Source of the DNA: Planctomycetia bacterium
Lineage (GTDB): Bacteria > Planctomycetota > Planctomycetia > Planctomycetales > Planctomycetaceae
DNA length: 44,475 nt
Reading direction: 5' to 3'
NCBI GenBank assembly: GCA_016200145.1
Contig: JACQFH010000037.1
Span: 1 to 44,475 of the forward strand
The position numbers and the translations under genes were made by a program. The notes below the pieces were generated by a model. The model saw only the letters and a program-made list of their open reading frames with translations. It was not told where the DNA came from and ran no database searches. This document shows positions 27,441 to 44,475 of this stretch, in pieces; within the stretch, counting starts at the first letter, position 1; each line of letters begins with the position of its first letter.

Positions 27441-27447
27441 CAGGAAG

Positions 27448-27520
27448 CGCACCGCGCAGGAGTCGAACCTGCAACCCTCAGCTTCGTAGGCTGATGCTCT
27501 ATCCATTGAGCTAGCGGTGC
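27448..27520 (-). tRNA. tRNA-Arg (anticodon ACG)
   Basis: On the minus strand the sequence folds as a complete cloverleaf. The acceptor stem GCACCGC pairs with GCGGTGC, the D arm has GCTC/GAGC, the anticodon stem TCAGC/GCTGA holds loop CTACGAA with anticodon ACG, and the T arm GCAGG/CCTGC holds TTCGACT. The discriminator base is G and CCA is not encoded. It reads CGN arginine codons after wobble deamination. Confidence 0.96.
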
Positions 27521-27621: not shown

Positions 27622-30017
27622 TCATGCTTCCAGCAGCATCCGCATCAGATTCGGAACACCGTGCCCCTGGTGATACTGATCACGGGCAATATCGGTGCAG
27701 GTGCGTGTCAGCAGCTCTTTGACCTCGTCGGGGCGACCGATGTATTCGCGGCGCACCGACAGAAACGCGGCCAACAGACCGGAGACGTGCGGACAAGCCA
27801 TGCTGGTCCCGCTGTCTTCGCGATAGGCGGCAAAGCTCTTGCCTTTCCGCTGCGGATTGTAATTCGAGTTGCAGGACGTAATCCGCTCGCCCGGTGCGAC
27901 GACGTCGGGCTTTTTTCGCCCGTCGGCAGTCGGGCCCCGAGATGAGAAATAGGAGACACCGTAAAAGTGGGGCTTGTCCGTGTGCACCGAACCGACGGCA
28001 ATGCACTCTTCGAGATTTGCAGGATCGCCGATCGAGAGGGACGTATTCAGTTCGACGGCGCCGTCGGCGGTCGAGACTTCGATCTGGCCTTCGTTGCCCG
28101 CGGCAACGCAGACCAACACTCCTCGCTGCCAGAGGTCGCGCAGCTCCTTGCAGATCGGCGAATAGCCGCAGCCATACACGGTCGCGTCGAATGGCCCCCC
28201 CCAGGCTCAGGTTCACTCCGTGAATCGCAGTGCACGGCTCGTTTTCGTTGCGGCGCAGAATATCGTCGATGGCTTTGATGATCCACGCGTCTTCACCTTC
28301 GCCATTGTCGTCGAGTACCTTGTAGACGATCAATTTGGCGCGGGGGGCGAGGCCCAGGTAGCGAGGATGACCCCCGCCTCCTGCCCGGCGATGATTCCTG
28401 AAACGTGCGTTCCGTGACCGTCGGCACCCTGACGCTTCGAATTAGTGATGGGGACAGGCTTCGATGAACTCGTGGTGCAGTCGTACACGGCTTCGACCGT
28501 CGCTCCGAAGCCCTGATCGCTGAAATGGGGATGATCCGACCGACAACCGGTGTCCAGGACCGCCCATCGGATTCCGCGACCATTGGCGGTGTAGCTTTCC
28601 CTCGCCGCATCGACGCTAAGGGGACCATGCGACCGCACCAGGAGCTTTCGCTTCTTGGCGCTTCGCCAGACCGCATAGACGTGGAAGTCGTGCGGTCGTG
28701 TTCCGAGTTCCTGGATTTCGGGCGGCGTGAGGTGCGCGGCGACGTACTTGCGCAACGTCTGAATGCCGGCTGCCTCGACAGCGTCCTTGAGATCGCTCCC
28801 CTTGTGGTGTTTGAGCACCAATGCGCGAACATCCTCGGCAACGCGATTGACGCGCCCTTCGAGCGTCTTCAGCGCTCCGGGCTGTTCCGCTTCGCGGGCC
28901 TCCAGTTCGGCGCGGGTTTCGTCGACGGCCTCGTACCGCGGCTCAAGCACTTCGACCAGCACGGGATGACGCTGCGCCGGTGCGGCAAACCGTTCGGCGA
29001 CGTCGCGAGCCACCACAAACCGCCCGGCCGAATCGAATCGTATGGCATGATGAACGACTTTGCGCACCTCGAGATTCGACAGGTAACCCGTCGCGTCGTG
29101 CGGGTTGACTCCTTGCAGATCACGCAAGCTGCGATTCAGGACAAGGTGATCGCGAATGGCGACGCGGTTACGGGCGGCATAGTCGTTGGCCTGGCCGTGG
29201 TCGAGCGCTACGGGATCGAGCGGGTCCGAAAAATTCTGCCAGTCGCTGACGCCCGGCGGAACCTTGAGATCGAAGTGACCGGCCCGCAATCTGTCTTGCA
29301 CTTCCTGCAAGCCCAGAGGTGAACCAAGAGTCACGAACAAGAGGGCTTCGGCCCGTTTGTTCAGCTCGAGCTCGGTGAGTACCTCGAATGCCGCGACCGT
29401 TCCCTGACTGTGCGACACGAGAATAAACGGCTCGCCGCCCGAAGGAAGCTGGTCGATCAAGCGTTGCTTGATTCGTTGTCGCACCGTCGGATCGAAAAAA
29501 TAGGCGGCCGAGTCGGCCACGAAGAACCGCATGAAAGCGCGGGCAATCGGGTCCCGCAGAAATTGCGGGAGCGGCAGTAACTTCTTCTGGAAGGCCCGCG
29601 CGTCGGGCATCGGAAAGCCCCCCCCCCCAGCGATTCGAACAATCGCTCGAAATATTCGCGCGCGTCGGAATCGTTCGGATCGACCCCCGCCCGACGGAGC
29701 ACGGCTTTCGCCGAATCCACGGTGCTCCGGGCGCTCGCCTGGTGGATCGATTCGGCCAGCGACACCTGTGGATTGTGCAGGATATCGGCCCAATAGGCCA
29801 TGCGGGTTTCTTCGCCCATGTTTTTGCCGAACAGCGCGAGATCCCACTCCCCCTTCAACGATTCGGCCGAAGGTTTGGGACCGACGCTGTGAATGTAGAC
29901 GACGATCCGATTGTCGGCAGGCTCGCGGCTCACGGCCGCGGCGCGCCTTTGCGTCGACGTCTTATGACGACGGCCGCGTCCGGCGGCGGTCGTTCGTTGA
30001 TGCCGTCGCTTGGCCAT
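27622..30017 (-). pseudogene. Alpha/beta-hydrolase fused to subtilase (S8), three frameshifts
   Basis: Reading from ATG 30017, one protein of about 797 residues is spread over changing frames. A basic leader (MAKRRHQRTTAAGRGRRHK) is followed by an alpha/beta-hydrolase-like domain with IVVYIHSVG and the nucleophile elbow VSHSQGTVAA (Ser codon 29407-29409). A spacer contains a coiled region (about residues 290-400). An S8 domain comes last with the Asp site AVLDTGCRSDHPHF, the His site DGHGTHVSGIIAG, the oxyanion Asn in VAAGNEGQ and the Ser site SGTSMACPHVSG, so the triad is intact. Frame changes occur at the C11 run 29618-29628, near the C5 run 28371-28375 and at the C8 run 28195-28202. Each needs only a one-base change. 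No signal peptide is seen, so the protein is probably cytoplasmic. It is last in a minus-strand cassette. It may be a real pseudogene, a slippage-switched gene or a sequencing error. Confidence 0.8.
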
Positions 30018-30118
30018 GATTTATGCCTCACAAGTTTCCGAAATCTGTACGACGTCTGCCGCGATCGACTGGCACACTGTCGTGAACTCATTCGCGTTCG
30101 ACAACATCGCCGCCGACT

Positions 30119-31396
30119 TCATAAGATGTCTCCCGCGCTGATCACGGAGGCCGACGCGTCGATTTCGTCGGCCGGCACGCCTTCTTTCCAGTCGAGATCG
30201 AAAACGTCGCGATAGTAACCCGAGATATTGACCGACCGCACGAGCACTCCCGCCTCACGCGCGCGCAAGACCGAATTTTCGCTCCAGTTGGTCGAACTCA
30301 CGACGACCGCCTCGTCGTCGACAATCACGCCCTTGTTATGGCAATGCGTGAACGGCTTTGGATTCAGAGCCTTGAGTGAATCGAGCATCCCGGCCGCCTT
30401 GAGCGTCTTTTTCGTGCCTTCCCAGCCCGAGGCAAACGTCGCGCTGGTGATGATCCGCAAATCGAGCTTTTTGAATTTTGATTTTCGATCGGCAATGATT
30501 TCGAGCAGGTCGCGGATCCCCTTGCCCGCGAGAATGTACTGCTGCTGCAGCAGAACGCTTTTTTCAGCCGATTGCAGCAGAGCTTTCACTTCTTTCAGGT
30601 AATTGTCGGGCGAGACGATGGGCGTAACCGAGCCGCCCGGCGCAGCGACGTTCTTCATGCCAAACAACTTGCCCGGCGGTTGGACCGCCGCCGCGACGAG
30701 CATGTCGTCGAACTCGAGATCGGCGCTGCTCGCGGCGGCGCCGGCACTGGCGGGAATATTGAAGTCGGCGTCGAACAGCGTGGTAAACCACTGGGCGATG
30801 TCCTTGTCGTCGAAGCGGATGAACCACTCGCGATTTCCCTTTTTGAATTTGCCGGCCGTGTCGATTTCAGGCACTGAGCTCTTCGCCCAGTTCGCGCTCT
30901 CGACGACGACAATCGAGTCGTCGATGACAAGAAACTTCTGATGGCAAACCGTGAAGACGGCGCGGTCGTCTCTCGACGGGGCGGCCTTCACGTTCTTCGC
31001 CGAAGCGACCGTCTTCAGCGCGGCCAATTCGGCGGGGCCTCCGGAATTGCCGTCGTACATTGCACGGATCTTCACCTTGCGCTTGTTGGCGGCTGCCAGA
31101 AGGGCAATCAGGTACGGCGCACTCAGATCGTAAATGTAAATCAGAAGAGTTTTTGTGGCCTGGTCGATGGCCTGCTTCAGGAACAGGTACGAGCTGTCGG
31201 GGCTCACCGCGCAGGTGGCGCTGGACATTGGAAAAGTTTTGAACGAAAGCGTTGGCATCCGCGAGGGATCAAAGCGTCCGACGGTGAGCTGCAGCGAATC
31301 TTCGATCCCGCGGCAGAATTTCGCGGCGGCTGCGAATTCTTTGCTCGAAATGCGAGGGCGTTTGGTTACGTGAATGCTCATTGACGTGGGATGCAA
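30119..31396 (-). CDS. Phospholipase D-type protein with two HKD motifs
   Basis: The 425-residue protein has both catalytic HKD motifs of the PLD superfamily: HQKFLVIDD (His152, Lys154, Asp159) and HNKGVIVDD (His353, Lys355, Asp360). Each is followed by the expected N residue of SANW or STNW. Members cleave or transfer phosphodiester bonds in phospholipids or in DNA/RNA. Sequence alone does not tell which applies here. No signal peptide or membrane helix is present, which fits a cytosolic nuclease or lipase. Met6 at 31381 is an equally likely start. The gene begins 16 nt after the propeptide-like gene and lies 101 nt before the hydrolase-subtilase gene. Confidence 0.9.
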   Translation of the reverse strand: MHPTSMSIHVTKRPRISSKEFAAAAKFCRGIEDSLQLTVGRFDPSRMPTLSFKTFPMSSATCAVSPDSSYLFLKQAIDQATKTLLIYIYDLSAPYLIALLAAANKRKVKIRAMYDGNSGGPAELAALKTVASAKNVKAAPSRDDRAVFTVCHQKFLVIDDSIVVVESANWAKSSVPEIDTAGKFKKGNREWFIRFDDKDIAQWFTTLFDADFNIPASAGAAASSADLEFDDMLVAAAVQPPGKLFGMKNVAAPGGSVTPIVSPDNYLKEVKALLQSAEKSVLLQQQYILAGKGIRDLLEIIADRKSKFKKLDLRIITSATFASGWEGTKKTLKAAGMLDSLKALNPKPFTHCHNKGVIVDDEAVVVSSTNWSENSVLRAREAGVLVRSVNISGYYRDVFDLDWKEGVPADEIDASASVISAGDIL

Positions 31397-31412
31397 GTTG
31401 AGGCTCGACCAG

Positions 31413-31859
31413 TCACTTCTGCGATCGCCGGGTGCCTTTCGACTTCAATTGAACGACGCGCTTTCGGACAGGACGGATCAGCATGTCCTCCGACGACACC
31501 TCCGGCAGCCGGCAGGCGACCTCTTCGTGTTTCTCGAGCGACTCGACCAGTTCCGGCGATCCCGACACCGAAAACGAATCGATATTCGGATAGATCTTTA
31601 CGTCTTGCGACTTCGCGCCACTTTCCGACTCGGCTTTCTCGACGATCCTGCGAACCACCTTGCGGATCGTTTCCGGACTTCGCGGGGCCCTGCCCGCAGG
31701 CGATCGGAGCGTAAACTTGGCTTTCACCGGATTGTTCGCCGAGGCTTTCTTCCGGCCCTGGCTGCGTCTGGTTTCGCCGGCTGACTTCTTCGACGCGTTG
31801 CGTTTCCTGACCATGAGGACCTTTCCGCGCCTGGCGACGACGCAGTCGTTCGGCGTCAT
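31413..31859 (-). CDS. Small basic protein resembling a free-standing subtilisin propeptide
   Basis: The 148-residue protein has a very basic first half (MVRKRNASKK, TRRSQGRKKAS). Its C-terminal half looks like the I9/subtilisin-propeptide fold, with IYPNIDSFSVSGSPELVESL, then LEKHEEVACRLPE and LIRPVRKRV. The same pattern (VYPNLG, LLKHPDVKAV, SLIKP) occurs in the propeptide of the adjacent subtilase, so the two are probably homologous. Free-standing propeptides of this fold act as intramolecular chaperones or as tight protease inhibitors in trans. The ATG overlaps the subtilase stop as ATGA, so translation is coupled. It lacks a signal peptide. The assignment is by eye and has not been confirmed by a profile search. 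Confidence 0.65.
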   Translation of the reverse strand: MTPNDCVVARRGKVLMVRKRNASKKSAGETRRSQGRKKASANNPVKAKFTLRSPAGRAPRSPETIRKVVRRIVEKAESESGAKSQDVKIYPNIDSFSVSGSPELVESLEKHEEVACRLPEVSSEDMLIRPVRKRVVQLKSKGTRRSQK

Positions 31860-33190
31860 GATGACATTCGCTTCGTCTTCGTCGACCGCTTCCTGGCGGT
31901 CGAATTCTTCCGCACAGCCTGTTTCTTCACCGCCGGCGCCGTTGTTTTGCCGGCCGTCGCCGACTTGCCTTGCAATATCGCCAGAGCCTTAACCGCATCG
32001 GGCACTCCGCGATTGGCGCGAGCGACGGTCATCGTCTTCGGCAAAGTGCACGACTTGAGGATGGCGTTCTCGATCTCGTCGACGGTGGCGCTCGGCTTGG
32101 CCTCCCACAGCAGGGCTGCCAGGCCGGCGATGTGGGGCGTCGCCATCGAGGAGCCGTCCATTTTAGCAAAGCCTCCGTTCGGAATGGACGAAAGGATGCC
32201 CACACCCGGCGCGACGAAGTCAGGAACTCGCCGCTTGACAGGACGCAGCAAGGACTGGCTCGAAGAAAAACCGGCCACTTCATCGTTGTTGTCGCAGGCG
32301 CCGACCGACAAGACAATTTCGTAGTTGCCCGGTGAACGACTCGTTCCGGGACCTTCATTCCCAACGGCAATGACCGGCAGCACGCCGCGGTTTCGCACGG
32401 CCTGCATCAGCGCGACGAAATCTTCATGGTATCCGCGCAGTCCGAGCGACATGCTGAGCACCTTCACCTTTTGCCCGATCACCCAATCCAATCCTTCGAG
32501 AATGCGGGCCACGACGTCGCCACCCTCGATCACCATGGTGCTGGCCAGCCTGGCTCCGGGAGCGATTCCGAATTCGCTTCCTTTGACTTCTCGTCCCACA
32601 ATTGTGCCGGCAGTGTGCGTTCCGTGCTCGTCGCTGTCGTGTGGTTTCGCACCAGGCTTTCGATTTCCGTCCAGGTCGATCTCCACGAATGATGCGACTG
32701 CGCCCTTGAGCGCCGGATGCCTGGCATCGACGCCGGTATCGAGATGCCCGACAAGTACTCCTTTACCTGTAATGTCTTTGGCCCACAATTCATTTGCGCG
32801 AAGCCGCTTAATGCCCCAACTCACATCCTTTGTCGCCTTGGCCGCGGCAACCTTGTTCGGCTTGATGAGACTGATTTGTGGCGTGCCGTTGACCGCTTTC
32901 ACGTCCGGATGTTTGAGCAGCGCCTTGTAGCCCCGCTCATCCACCGTGCCGAGCACCACGCCCAGGTTTGGATAGACACGGTACGGTCTCTGCGGCCGGC
33001 GCCGTCGTCCGAGCGACATTGCGACGGCGCCGCGGTGACTTTCCATCGACGAACGAAAATGCTTGACGACGTCGCTGACAGCGGCATGACTGGCAGTCAA
33101 CGCAACGCTGTCTCCGGGCGCAACATTCTTGAGGGTGACAATGACATCGGTGACTCCGAAGTCTCTCAGCGCCAATTTGACGGACGCCAT
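31856..33190 (-). CDS. Intracellular subtilisin-like serine protease (S8) with propeptide
   Basis: The 444-residue protein has a propeptide of about 120 residues with VYPNLGVVLGTVDERGYKAL near 72. The peptidase domain follows, with a complete catalytic set: Asp151 in GHLDTGVDARHPA, His189 in DEHGTHTAGT, oxyanion Asn278 in VGNEGPG and Ser348 in DGSSMATPHIAG. A Lys/Arg-rich tail of about 35 residues ends the protein. There is no signal peptide, so it resembles intracellular subtilases rather than secreted ones. GGAGG lies 9 nt before the ATG. It is the first gene of the cassette and overlaps the propeptide-like gene by 4 nt. An AT-rich palindrome is found about 75 nt upstream of the start. Confidence 0.93.
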   Translation of the reverse strand: MASVKLALRDFGVTDVIVTLKNVAPGDSVALTASHAAVSDVVKHFRSSMESHRGAVAMSLGRRRRPQRPYRVYPNLGVVLGTVDERGYKALLKHPDVKAVNGTPQISLIKPNKVAAAKATKDVSWGIKRLRANELWAKDITGKGVLVGHLDTGVDARHPALKGAVASFVEIDLDGNRKPGAKPHDSDEHGTHTAGTIVGREVKGSEFGIAPGARLASTMVIEGGDVVARILEGLDWVIGQKVKVLSMSLGLRGYHEDFVALMQAVRNRGVLPVIAVGNEGPGTSRSPGNYEIVLSVGACDNNDEVAGFSSSQSLLRPVKRRVPDFVAPGVGILSSIPNGGFAKMDGSSMATPHIAGLAALLWEAKPSATVDEIENAILKSCTLPKTMTVARANRGVPDAVKALAILQGKSATAGKTTAPAVKKQAVRKNSTARKRSTKTKRMSS

Positions 33191-40343: not shown

Positions 40344-41456
40344 TCACTTGTCAGCGGCTTTGGCGACGGCTTCGGCAACGGCTCGTTCGAGCTCGGCGTC
40401 GTCGGCAGGGTCGCGCTGCAGGATCTTGCCTTGCGCGTCGATCAGAATGACCGTTGGAAAATCGGAAATGTTCCAGCGGGAAACGATGGGCCCGTCGTCG
40501 CCGTCGGAGAATGAGGGCCAGGTCATTTTCTGCTCTTTCATCACGGCGGCCGCCTTTTTCTTCTGATCTCCACAATTGACGCCGACGACGGTGAACGGCC
40601 GGCCGGAAAATTTTTCCATCAGCATCCGCTCGAACGGGACTTTGGCCATGCAAGGTTGGCACCAGGTTCCCCAGAAGACGAGCAACACGACTTTGCCCCG
40701 AAAACCGCTGAGCTTGAGGGGCTTGCCCGCCACGTCGTCGCCGGCCAGCTCGGGAATCATTTTCCCGGGGCGCAAATTCTGAATCTCGAAGATTGCGCCC
40801 GCGGCGAGCTGTTTGAGGGTCTTCTCTTCGTCGTCGGGCTGAATGTCGCCGTACTCTTTGCGGACGCGCTCGAGCAGCGATTCGATCGCCCCTTGCCGTT
40901 TGGCGTCGTCGGTTCCGCCGAGTCGCTTCGCGCGTCTCCGCGCCAGATGATACAACCCGAGACCGCGGATTTCGCGGGTTTCCCCTTTTTCACCCAGCCG
41001 CTCCAGCAGCGATTCGGCCCGTTCCGATGGACACGCCGCGAGGACGGGAAACGCCGTTTTCAGCCGCGGCGATTTGACGTGGTGTTTTTCGAACAGCGCG
41101 AGGGCCTCGTCGAGCACGGCGAGCGCATCGGGCGCGTCGAGGTTTTCGACGATCCAGACCAGTGCGTCGAACGACGTGCCGTCGGCCGGCGCTTCTTTGA
41201 CCAGCGCCAGGATCTGCTTGCCGAAATCCAGGTCCGAGGGTTTTTTCTTTTCGGCCGTGGCCCGTTCAGCGTCGGTTTTCGCGCTTTCCAGCGATTTGAA
41301 ATAGGCCGTGTATTGCTTTTCAAATTCCCCGGTAATGGCCAGGAAGCGGCCGCCGCGGCTTTGTTTCTGAAATACGTTTTCAGCCGCTCCGAGACGACCC
41401 GTCAGGGCGACCGCTGTCGCCAGCAGGCTGAACATTATTGTGGGCAGATGTGTCAT
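40344..41456 (-). CDS. TlpA-like thioredoxin-fold protein, exported
   Basis: The 370-residue protein begins with a signal peptide (IMFSLLATAVALTGRLGA). Residues about 30-225 are helical and charged, without a recognised domain. The C-terminal part (about 230-365) is a TlpA/AhpC-type thioredoxin domain with the active site FWGTWCQPCMA (Cys266 and Cys269) and the cis-proline segment FPTVILIDAQGKI near 340. It should act as a periplasmic thiol-disulfide reductase, for example in cytochrome c maturation or in repair of exported proteins. The gene is convergent with the sedolisin gene. Confidence 0.92.
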   Translation of the reverse strand: MTHLPTIMFSLLATAVALTGRLGAAENVFQKQSRGGRFLAITGEFEKQYTAYFKSLESAKTDAERATAEKKKPSDLDFGKQILALVKEAPADGTSFDALVWIVENLDAPDALAVLDEALALFEKHHVKSPRLKTAFPVLAACPSERAESLLERLGEKGETREIRGLGLYHLARRRAKRLGGTDDAKRQGAIESLLERVRKEYGDIQPDDEEKTLKQLAAGAIFEIQNLRPGKMIPELAGDDVAGKPLKLSGFRGKVVLLVFWGTWCQPCMAKVPFERMLMEKFSGRPFTVVGVNCGDQKKKAAAVMKEQKMTWPSFSDGDDGPIVSRWNISDFPTVILIDAQGKILQRDPADDAELERAVAEAVAKAADK

Positions 41457-42281: not shown

Positions 42282-43769
42282 CTACTCGTATTTCACGTCC
42301 CGGACTTCGATTTTCATTTTGCTGAGCGCGGCCACCAGCGGCAAAAACGACATGATGGGGGACACGTCTCCGTCGGAGGAAAAGCTCGAATCGCCGAACT
42401 TTATGTGGTCGGCGGCGATGCCTCCGCGCCCCAGCGTGGCATCCAGCGGGACCCACTTCCCGCGCACGTAGACTTCGGTCCACATGTGCCCGCCGAAGCT
42501 CGCCAGGCTGGGGACGTACACGAGCCCCACGGCGACGCGCGACGGAATGCCGCGGGCCCGGCACATCGCAGCCAGCAGCACGGCGTGCTCGGTACAGTCT
42601 CCGGAGAGGTCCTTGGCGACTTCGGCGGCCGAGGCCAGCAGCGTCGAGAAATTCTTCTGCTTCAGGTTCTCGGCAACCCACTTCTCCATGAGCTGCGACT
42701 GTTTCCAGGGTTCGCTCTCGTCCTTGACGGCGTCAGCCGCGTGCTTGCGCACCCGATTGTCGTCGCTCTGAATGTACTCGTTGGGCGCGAGGAACTCGCG
42801 CCCGGGATTCTGGGGCGCGCCGGCGGGGGCTTCCTCGGGGGGCGCAATGGCCGTGACGGTGAGATCGACCGCGTAGTCGCTGACCCTCTCCACCTGCTGC
42901 GTCGGCCCCGTGCTGAGCGCTTTGGCCGGGTCTTCGCCGGTAATGCTGACGCGGTACACGGCGCGGCGCGTTTCGGCGGACCTGTCGATTTTGCCGGCCT
43001 TCACCAGCGTCGCGAACGCCATGTCGACTTCTTCCCCCGTCAGCGCCTTGAGGGCTTCGTCTTTCGTGACTGTGTAAGTGGCCATGTTCGCAAAGCTGAC
43101 GATCGACTTCAGCGCGACTCCCTTTTCGTCGAGGAACTCGGTCGCCGTAATCAGCGGCGCCACGCTCTGCGAAATCGCGACCGCCAGCAATTTCCTGGAT
43201 TTGCCGCCCAAGAGCGGCACATCTTCGATGGCGCCGGCCGTCAGCGTGACGGTGCTGCGTTTTCCGAACTGGGGGTCGAATGTCTCGAGGACTCGTTTGT
43301 CGCCGGGCTTCAGCGGGTTTTCACGCAACAGCCGATCCTGGTAGGCCGGCGACTTGACCGACCGGTCCCACTTCATTTCCTTCGTCGTCGGCTTGCCGTT
43401 CGTTTCGGTTGTCAGAAACAGCTTGTCCCCTTCGACACGGCCGCTGCTGCGCAAGGGGGCGGCGGGAGGGTTCTGCATTTCAAAGCGAAACGCCAGGAGT
43501 TCCCCCTCGGGCGTCTCTTCGGAATGCGTGATGGCCTTCGTTTTCACCGATTGCTTGAAGCGGGCGATTGTCATGTTCATTTCGCTGTCGGTCATGACCA
43601 CCTCGCGCCCGTCGCGCTTGAGGCGTCCTGACGACGAACGGGCATAACCCACTCGCGATTTTCCAATGTACACGACCTGCCACGACTCCTCGAAATCCTC
43701 CAGCTCGGCGGCCGACGCGTGGGCCGCCGGGCTGGAGGATTTCGAGGAGTCGTGGCAGGTCGTGTACAT
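42282..43769 (-). CDS. Transglutaminase-like protein with disrupted 5' end
   Basis: The C-terminal domain carries the transglutaminase/protease-like triad: Cys392 in SGDCTEHAVLLAA, His428 in GGHMWTEVYVRGKW and Asp443 in VPLDAT (numbers from ATG 43769). The region before it is a long beta-rich domain, starting at about ESWQVVYIGKSRVGYARSS. The open frame extends to an ATG at 43916, but everything upstream of about 43720 is the reverse complement of the gene's own 5' part. The original start, probably with a signal peptide, is therefore missing. Related planctomycete proteins are secreted and cleave or cross-link peptides. This copy may be unexpressed, truncated or expressed from an internal start. 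Confidence 0.75.
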   Translation of the reverse strand: MYTTCHDSSKSSSPAAHASAAELEDFEESWQVVYIGKSRVGYARSSSGRLKRDGREVVMTDSEMNMTIARFKQSVKTKAITHSEETPEGELLAFRFEMQNPPAAPLRSSGRVEGDKLFLTTETNGKPTTKEMKWDRSVKSPAYQDRLLRENPLKPGDKRVLETFDPQFGKRSTVTLTAGAIEDVPLLGGKSRKLLAVAISQSVAPLITATEFLDEKGVALKSIVSFANMATYTVTKDEALKALTGEEVDMAFATLVKAGKIDRSAETRRAVYRVSITGEDPAKALSTGPTQQVERVSDYAVDLTVTAIAPPEEAPAGAPQNPGREFLAPNEYIQSDDNRVRKHAADAVKDESEPWKQSQLMEKWVAENLKQKNFSTLLASAAEVAKDLSGDCTEHAVLLAAMCRARGIPSRVAVGLVYVPSLASFGGHMWTEVYVRGKWVPLDATLGRGGIAADHIKFGDSSFSSDGDVSPIMSFLPLVAALSKMKIEVRDVKYE

Positions 43770-43818
43770 TGGAAAATCGCGAGTGGGTGATGCCCGTTCG
43801 TCGTCAGGTCGCCTCAAG
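43617..43818. repeat. 202-bp near-perfect palindrome over the transglutaminase 5' end
   Basis: The arms 43617-43713 and 43722-43818 (97 bp each) are reverse complements with three mismatches. The 8-nt centre GACGCGTG contains the palindrome ACGCGT, so the centre of symmetry is at 43717/43718. On the plus strand the right arm encodes the same protein segment as the gene does on the minus strand and ends at a TAA soon afterwards. Beyond the arms the sequences differ completely. Confidence 0.92.
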
Positions 43819-44475
43819 CCATCGGAATCATAAGTGCTTGCCCGTTGAAACGCCACGGCGCGGCAGGTCCCAACTGGACGGCGAATGAAGCTTGGAAACC
43901 GGGTAATGCACCACATATTCCGGGCGACCGGACCTGGTAATTCCGGGGGTCAGACAGAGCTTCTGAATATTTATAGAGTGAATAATGACCCATGAAATCT
44001 GAAAATGCTTCCCCCGGCGGCGCGCTCCGTATCTGCCGGGCGCACGGTGACTTGCGGCGAGCCGGAACGCGAAACGTGGCGACGCCCCGACTGACGCTCC
44101 CGCGCGTTTTTTTCCAAAAAAACGGGCGCAACAATTTTCATGGCAAGCAGTTGCGGATTATTCATCTGCAAAAAAGCGACTTTCACAAAACGGCCACTTT
44201 GACACGCGAATGCGCTGGGAATGCGCGCTTTCAGGGGCGGTTTGGGGTCATTTGAGGGCCCTGATCGTGAATAATCGGCGCCAAAATGGCATTCCTGCGC
44301 AAATTCTGGTGCGCGGGGCGCGGCGGCCGGTCTCGATCCGGGACACGCGCGGAGCAAGCTCCGCGGCTGAACGGGCGTGTGTCTGAACGCAGTGCCGCAA
44401 CGATTCGCGGCTCAGCGTTCTGCACACTGCTTCAGGAATTATTCGACCGACCACGGAATCGGGTCAATGGGGCAG
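43819..44475. other. Terminal region without a gene; hairpin and TTATTCAC sites
   Basis: No frame here has protein character. GTTTTTTT (44106-44113) and AAAAAAAC (44116-44123) form a perfect AT hairpin of unusual base composition. The 8-mer TTATTCAC occurs on the minus strand at 43978-43985 and 44267-44274, and TTATTCAT on the plus strand at 44158-44165. These resemble DnaA boxes or regulator sites. GTAATTCCGGGGGTCAGAC near 43937 looks like a short dispersed repeat. Confidence 0.4.

What the first reader, a model, noticed from the sequence alone, without database searches (positions are those of the whole stretch)
27622..33190. Uncharacterised four-gene subtilase / propeptide-like / PLD / hydrolase-subtilase cassette
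Four minus-strand genes are packed together: an S8 protease without signal peptide, a 148-aa protein that looks like a free-standing S8 propeptide and overlaps the protease by 4 nt, a two-HKD PLD-type protein 16 nt further on, and an alpha/beta-hydrolase-S8 fusion. All lack signal peptides, and three of them have strongly basic tails that could bind nucleic acid. By established knowledge, protease-plus-nuclease/lipase pairings in compact cassettes are typical of conflict or programmed-death systems (for example the PLD-type DrmC of DISARM). I do not recognise this set as described. One model, which is inference: the protease is held inactive by the trans-acting propeptide until a trigger frees it to activate the PLD or hydrolase effector.
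Basis: partly seen in the sequence, partly recalled or inferred. Interest (0 to 1): 0.85.

Follow-up and report, generated by a model that had tools for sequence, protein, structure and literature searches.

The report
Protease, propeptide partner and PLD cassette
A planctomycete bacterium carries a small operon in which an internal protein-cutting enzyme sits next to a separate protein resembling that enzyme's own safety cap and next to a phospholipase D-like enzyme; the protease-plus-cap pair recurs in unrelated bacteria, so this looks like a restrained self-destruct or defence module that has not been described in this form.

Summary
The cassette is real, with one correction. The S8 protease, the 148-aa protein and the two-HKD PLD protein are intact minus-strand genes. 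The hydrolase-S8 gene is not one ORF: three frameshifts at C/G runs (C11 at 29618, near 28371-28375, C8 at 28195) break it, although an intact 791-aa fusion exists in another planctomycete. The exact four-gene set was found nowhere else, but its parts recur. (1) All six S8 genes found at 49% identity or more, in four planctomycete and two alphaproteobacterial genomes, lie beside a homologue of the small protein, once convergently. That protein resembles the S8's own N-terminal propeptide-like domain. (2) PLD relatives are nearly absent from planctomycetes but occur on rhizobial plasmids, where 12 of 12 loci have a protease beside or fused to the PLD. (3) The hydrolase has relatives in a rhizobial operon holding a trypsin-NucA nuclease fusion. 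Best reading: a compact planctomycete variant of the multi-peptidase/nuclease conflict systems (Kaur et al. 2020, 'System 3'), with PLD replacing NucA and the subtilase restrained by a trans-acting propeptide. The restraint is supported by sequence and synteny only; what the protease activates is inferred. It is not DISARM.

The parts
31856..33190 (-). S8 subtilase, 444 aa, no evident signal peptide; N-terminal propeptide-like domain ending ..SLIKP (about residues 70-112), catalytic domain 142-381, basic C-terminal tail
   Evidence: Pfam PF00082 167 bits; 49-55% identical to five relatives over their aligned length; phmmer aligns residues 73-378 to a subtilisin E entry (3whi)
31413..31859 (-). 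148-aa propeptide-like partner, overlapping the S8 gene by 4 nt
   Evidence: Leave-one-out profile finds it at E=1.3e-18; homologue adjacent to the S8 in 6 of 6 S8-family loci; resembles the S8 N-terminal domain; beta-alpha-beta-beta-alpha-beta model, pLDDT 65
30119..31396 (-). Two-HKD PLD-family protein, 425 aa (TTG start; ATG alternative at 31381)
   Evidence: PLDc_2 115.7 bits, cut-off 27; 46% identical to a Bradyrhizobium plasmid protein; both HKD motifs invariant in the nine aligned proteins
27622..30017 (-). alpha/beta-hydrolase-S8 fusion gene, broken by three frameshifts in this assembly
   Evidence: Pieces found by the ORF listing, S8 matches in two pieces; about 43% identical to the intact 791-aa fusion of G205; hydrolase part related to rhizobial plasmid hydrolases
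29618..29628 (.). C11 tract (G11 on the coding strand), longest homopolymer of the window; first frameshift
   Evidence: frame change between pieces
28371..28375 (.). C5 run (G5 on the coding strand); approximate site of the second frameshift
   Evidence: sequence and frames
28195..28202 (.). C8 tract; third frameshift, returning to the reading frame used before the second
27447..27520 (-). tRNA-Arg(acg) about 100 nt downstream of the cassette (possible insertion site, not shown)
   Evidence: ARAGORN

Best explanation
The cassette is a compact, horizontally assembled, multi-hydrolase conflict (defence or programmed-death) module. The cytosolic subtilase carries its own N-terminal propeptide-like domain. 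A second, free-standing domain of that kind, the 148-aa protein, is encoded in a gene that overlaps the protease gene and binds the active site as a trans-acting cap, as an antitoxin restrains a toxin. Removal or degradation of the cap on an unknown trigger would free the protease, which would then cleave and activate, or act alongside, the PLD enzyme (nuclease or phospholipase) and the hydrolase-S8 protein to dismantle the cell. Shown here by sequence: the gene arrangement, intact S8 triad and two HKD motifs, propeptide-like nature of the small protein, conserved adjacency of S8 and small protein, recurring protease-PLD linkage, shared components with the trypsin-NucA operons. Inferred: inhibition, trigger, cleavage of PLD or hydrolase, and biological outcome.
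For: S8+small adjacency in 6 of 6 S8-family members: window, G139, G138 convergent, G354, Azospirillum, Rhizobium TH2. Left-out planctomycete members of the small family are recovered at 1.6e-8 to 6e-23 (window 1.3e-18); the Azospirillum member at 1.4e-7 from planctomycete sequences alone. Small protein versus the S8's own propeptide-like domain: E 1.4e-4, score 30.4 against a shuffle maximum of 18.5, with a shared terminal LI(R/K)P motif. PLD with protease at 12 of 12 rhizobial loci: S8 in L005, L006, L007, L009, L010, L032, L072, L076; trypsin-like in L008 and fused in L011, L012, L074. S8 - 84/85-aa - PLD order in L009, L010, L032, L076. Hydrolase homologue in an operon with a trypsin-Endonuclease_NS fusion, CHAT and S8 (L033). 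Stand-alone propeptide-like proteins are known inhibitors of subtilases, one of them encoded beside subtilase genes (PMC6993865).
Against: No experiment. PLD is absent next to the S8+small pair in every other planctomycete found and in Azospirillum, so the pair can work without it. In the rhizobial S8-85aa-PLD triples the S8 is a different lineage, and their 85-aa proteins are not detectably related to P0002 or to their own S8's prodomain (11 of 200 shuffles score as high). Pfam Inhibitor_I9 does not match the small protein. The fourth gene may be non-functional. No sensor gene and no other defence gene was recognised among the window proteins scanned.
Confidence: 0.5

Rival explanations
1. 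The S8 and the small protein are a stand-alone regulated protease and its inhibitor or folding helper, like Myxococcus PopC with PopD, doing proteolytic signalling or stress proteolysis; PLD and hydrolase-S8 are unrelated neighbours brought together by chance in one genome.
For: The pair occurs without PLD in G138, G139, G354 and Azospirillum. [quoted passage not shown]
Against: Tight packing with PLD here (16 nt). In Rhizobium TH2 the same pair lies about 8 kb from an S8-84aa-PLD triple with CHAT and GAF/PAS proteins between. PLD relatives lie beside or fused to proteases in 12 of 12 rhizobial loci.
Confidence: 0.25
2. The small protein is mainly a trans-acting folding chaperone for the S8 rather than an inhibitor that must be removed.
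For: Subtilisin propeptides help the catalytic domain fold and then act as tight inhibitors (stated in PMC6993865). Adjacency and gene overlap fit either role.
Against: The S8 already carries its own N-terminal propeptide-like domain, so a second copy is unnecessary for folding alone.
Confidence: 0.12
3. It is a diverged DISARM-like or other catalogued anti-phage system.
For: PLD matches DrmC models weakly (45.9 bits PADLOC, 59.4 bits NCBIfam) and the S8 proteins match PADLOC 'subtilase' (102.9 bits for P0001).
Against: NCBIfam DrmC cut-off is 133 bits; IteS 12.9 and 23.9 bits against a cut-off of 900; no DISARM core protein among the flanking window proteins scanned.
Confidence: 0.05
4. The cassette is decaying: the hydrolase-S8 gene is a pseudogene and the locus is a remnant.
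For: Three frameshifts in one 2.4-kb gene; the flanking genes scanned are long open frames.
Against: All breaks lie at homopolymer runs, and sequence between the second and third breaks still reads as conserved S8 in the shifted frame, which fits sequencing error or very recent loss. The other three genes are intact with conserved active sites.
Confidence: 0.08

Closest known systems
NucA-peptidase conflict systems ('System 3' of Kaur et al. 2020, eLife, PMC7159879)
   Same: Several peptidases (trypsin-like, S8) with a nuclease-type effector, proposed proteolytic cascade, mostly alphaproteobacteria; a hydrolase homologue of the fourth gene sits in such an operon (L033, trypsin fused to Endonuclease_NS)
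   Different: The window has no NucA and no trypsin among the proteins scanned; PLD takes the effector place; text searches of the paper found no 'PLD' and no 'propeptide'
Stand-alone subtilase propeptide inhibitors (SUB1-ProM, TgMIC5, Pleurotus, yeast and Arabidopsis examples; PMC6993865)
   Same: Small independent protein with the propeptide fold; SUB1-ProM gene lies beside subtilase genes
   Different: Those named in the paper are eukaryotic; here bacterial, gene overlapping its protease gene, next to a PLD enzyme; inhibition untested
PopC-PopD of Myxococcus xanthus (PMC6434023)
   Same: Subtilisin-like protease of similar size without a recognised signal peptide, held in a complex with a partner protein that is degraded on starvation
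   Different: PopD's fold and relation to P0002 could not be tested; PopC acts outside the cell
DISARM DrmC / NucT / PLD nucleases
   Same: HKD-motif PLD superfamily
   Different: Scores far below family cut-offs; two HKD motifs in one 425-aa chain; DISARM partners not found among window proteins scanned

Membership tests
S8 subtilases | Catalytic Asp, His, Ser motifs and Pfam Peptidase_S8 above cut-off | tested here: met
   167.3 bits against 21.8; motifs conserved in six family members
PLD superfamily | HxKxxxxD motifs; Pfam PLDc_2 above cut-off | tested here: met
   115.7 bits against 27; two motifs
Subtilase propeptide / Inhibitor_I9 | Match to the Pfam Inhibitor_I9 profile | tested here: not met
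   No match; so described as propeptide-like, not filed as an I9 member
Subtilase propeptide / Inhibitor_I9 | Propeptide (ferredoxin-like) fold | tested here: inconclusive
   beta-alpha-beta-beta-alpha-beta order at pLDDT 65; best structural matches are generic ferredoxin-like folds at Z 7.5 or less; profile similarity to the partner S8's own N-terminal domain
Subtilase propeptide / Inhibitor_I9 | Inhibits a subtilase | not testable with these tools
   needs biochemistry
NucA-peptidase conflict system (System 3) | NucA-type endonuclease | tested here: not met
   None among the cassette and 18 further window proteins scanned
NucA-peptidase conflict system (System 3) | Trypsin-like peptidase | tested here: not met
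   None among those proteins
NucA-peptidase conflict system (System 3) | Shared components with bona fide members | tested here: met
   Hydrolase relative at E 3e-14 in operon L033 with trypsin-Endonuclease_NS fusion and S8; PLD relatives fused to trypsin domains
DISARM | DrmC model above cut-off | tested here: not met
   59.4 bits against 133
DISARM | DrmA/DrmB/methylase partners nearby | tested here: not met
   No such family among flanking window proteins scanned with Pfam and PADLOC
ietAS | IetS/IteS protease model above cut-off | tested here: not met
   12.9 and 23.9 bits against 900

The most novel reading that the evidence does not exclude
A new class of protease-based toxin-antitoxin-like conflict system: a cytosolic bacterial subtilase whose own type of propeptide exists a second time as a separate guard protein, with interchangeable lytic partners (PLD, hydrolase-S8, and in relatives GDSL esterase, amidase, murein endopeptidase, NucA, patatin, CHAT), spread between planctomycetes and plasmid-bearing rhizobia.
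Probability: 0.35. Interest if true: 0.82.

Novelty: new variant of a known kind. Interest (0 to 1): 0.62.

Why it matters
The stand-alone subtilase propeptides named in the paper consulted are eukaryotic. A genetically linked bacterial family would give a simple, testable way for cells to keep a cytosolic protease off, and would widen the proteolysis-driven conflict systems to a PLD effector. It also shows how self-contained modules (protease plus cap, PLD plus protease, hydrolase plus protease) are recombined between distant soil and plant-associated bacteria.

Tried and rejected
Searches for the PLD in 59, 392 and 382 sampled planctomycete genomes (overlapping samples) found a close, full-length match only in this genome. 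Two genome-contig scans and one viral-contig scan returned nothing, probably because the peptide patterns chosen were poor; no PLD match in phages. Insertion at the tRNA-Arg: no convincing flanking direct repeat, and in relatives the two flanking genes were not found together, so no empty site could be shown. AlphaFold of the S8 without an alignment failed (pLDDT 34). Foldseek/VIA on the small-protein model gave only generic ferredoxin-like folds; no subtilisin propeptide was listed among the rows shown, which excludes nothing. The idea that the rhizobial 84/85-aa proteins are also propeptide copies was suggested by eye but not supported by profile comparison. DISARM and ietAS membership rejected. 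PopD could not be compared for want of its sequence.
Full report
What is there. The window is a contig (G000:C62) of a planctomycete assembly of 8.28 Mb in 742 contigs; its flanks carry planctomycete DUF1501, DUF1549/DUF1553 and DUF1559 genes. On the minus strand, in order of transcription: an S8 subtilase (31856-33190), a 148-aa protein overlapping it by 4 nt (31413-31859), a two-HKD PLD-family protein 16 nt further on (30119-31396), then, after 101 nt, a region coding for an alpha/beta-hydrolase fused to a second S8 domain (27622-30017). A tRNA-Arg follows at 27447-27520. G+C falls to about 0.58-0.59 over 30-34 kb against about 0.61-0.67 in the other 2-kb steps.

Correction to the observation. 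The fourth gene is not open. Its reading frame changes three times, at a G11 run (29618-29628), near a G5 run (28371-28375) and at a G8 run (28195-28202) on the coding strand. The architecture itself is real: genome G205, in another planctomycete family, has an intact 791-aa hydrolase-S8 fusion about 43% identical to the window's pieces. Between the second and third breaks the shifted frame still reads KVLDDNGEGEDAWIIKAIDDI against KVLGDDGSGRDSWVIKALDDV in G205, so the gene is either misread at homopolymers or only just broken. A phase-variable G11 tract is possible but untested.

The S8 and its small partner. The S8 has an N-terminal domain that phmmer aligns to a subtilisin E entry (3whi, residues 73-378) and an intact triad. 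Relatives at 49-55% identity (alignment) were found in planctomycetes G139 and G138 and G354, in Azospirillum lipoferum plasmid AZO_p2 and in Rhizobium sp. TH2 plasmid pTH2a. In all six, counting the window, a P0002-like gene is adjacent: downstream and co-oriented in the window, G139, G354, Azospirillum and TH2, and convergent in G138. The small protein evolves fast (18-30% identity), but the family holds: profiles built without a given planctomycete member recover it at 1.6e-8 to 6e-23 (window 1.3e-18), and planctomycete sequences alone find the Azospirillum member at 1.4e-7. One further planctomycete, G152, has the small gene without an S8 beside it. In a sample of 392 planctomycete genomes the small family was found in five, so the pair is rare and patchy.

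Is it a propeptide? Profile comparison of the planctomycete small proteins with the S8 family's own N-terminal domain gives E 1.4e-4 and score 30.4, while 200 column shuffles reach at most 18.5. The matched part runs from V[YF]PNL to the same LI(R/K)P motif that ends the S8 propeptide-like domain. The single-sequence AlphaFold model has strand-helix-strand-strand-helix-strand order at mean pLDDT 65. Structure searches find only generic ferredoxin-like folds, and Pfam Inhibitor_I9 does not match. I therefore call it propeptide-like. Known stand-alone propeptides likewise lack significant sequence similarity (PMC6993865).

The PLD. Among sampled planctomycetes a close, full-length relative was found only in this genome. 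Fourteen plasmid records hold relatives, led by Bradyrhizobium at 46%. Twelve are rhizobial in the broad sense, and all twelve have a protease beside or fused to the PLD: S8 in L005, L006, L007, L009, L010, L032, L072 and L076; a trypsin-like protein in L008; trypsin fusions in L011, L012 and L074. The other two are a Sphingobium gene between IS21 elements and a weak Mycobacterium avium match next to a ligD gene. In L009, L010, L076 and L032 the order is S8, an 84/85-aa protein, PLD. Those small proteins look propeptide-like by eye, but the profile test does not support it (11 of 200 shuffles score as high), so this is a parallel arrangement, not proof of the same one. Neighbouring genes encode CHAT, caspase, patatin, DUF2252, metallopeptidase and redox proteins.

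Link to a described system. Kaur et al. 2020 (PMC7159879) describe alphaproteobacterial 'System 3': NucA endonuclease with several peptidases, sometimes S8, proposed to fire through a proteolytic cascade. Sinorhizobium locus L033 carries such a trypsin-Endonuclease_NS fusion together with a hydrolase related to the window's fourth gene (E 3e-14), CHAT and S8 proteins. In TH2 the P0001-type S8 domain ends a 1651-aa protein with GDSL esterase, amidase and murein endopeptidase domains, about 8 kb from the S8-84aa-PLD triple. The window cassette therefore shares parts with this network but lacks its defining NucA and trypsin. It works like it; it is not a member by definition. Text searches of that paper found no 'PLD' and no 'propeptide'.

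Mechanism. Most likely the small protein caps the protease in trans; loss of the cap frees it to act on the cell and probably to activate the PLD and hydrolase partners. The cap step rests on synteny and sequence similarity; everything downstream, including the trigger and whether the PLD cuts nucleic acid or lipid, is inference. Precedents: stand-alone eukaryotic propeptides inhibit subtilases (PMC6993865), and Myxococcus PopC is held in a complex with PopD, which is degraded on starvation (PMC6434023).

Verdict. An unusual combination of real, recurring modules, and a new variant of a known kind. The firmest new point is the S8 plus propeptide-like partner conserved across two phyla. The weakest is a functional unit of all four genes, which was seen only once and has a broken fourth gene.

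Noticed in passing
window 29618-29628: C11 tract, by far the longest homopolymer in the window, inside the hydrolase-S8 gene; sequencing error, recent decay or a phase-variable switch.
   Followed up: partly
L031 8995-10711: In Azospirillum lipoferum the S8+small pair sits between the periplasmic nitrate reductase and nitrous oxide reductase gene clusters of plasmid AZO_p2.
   Followed up: no
L032 20365-25656: Rhizobium TH2 protein of 1651 aa joins GDSL esterase, amidase, murein endopeptidase and S8 domains, followed by the small propeptide-like gene.
   Followed up: partly
L047 (G152:C28:48309-48653): A P0002-like small gene without a detectable S8 neighbour within the 13 kb held.
   Followed up: partly
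L005-L012, L034: Rhizobial plasmid loci mix CHAT, caspase, patatin, DUF2252, LodA/GoxA oxidase, RoxA-like cytochrome c, M12/M48 peptidases with PLD and proteases: a larger multi-hydrolase network that I did not find described.
   Followed up: partly
L034-L036: A hydrolase gene followed directly by a trypsin-like gene is conserved on Rhizobium and Agrobacterium plasmids, matching the hydrolase-protease fusion of the window.
   Followed up: partly
L009 6611-9520: In Agrobacterium leguminum plasmid p4 the S8-85aa-PLD triple lies directly beside the repABC replication genes.
   Followed up: no
L073 6623-8011: Sphingobium PLD relative lies between IS21 elements.
   Followed up: no
window 42282-43916 and 40344-41456: Transglutaminase-core protein and redoxin gene to the right of the cassette, apparently unrelated.
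   Followed up: no
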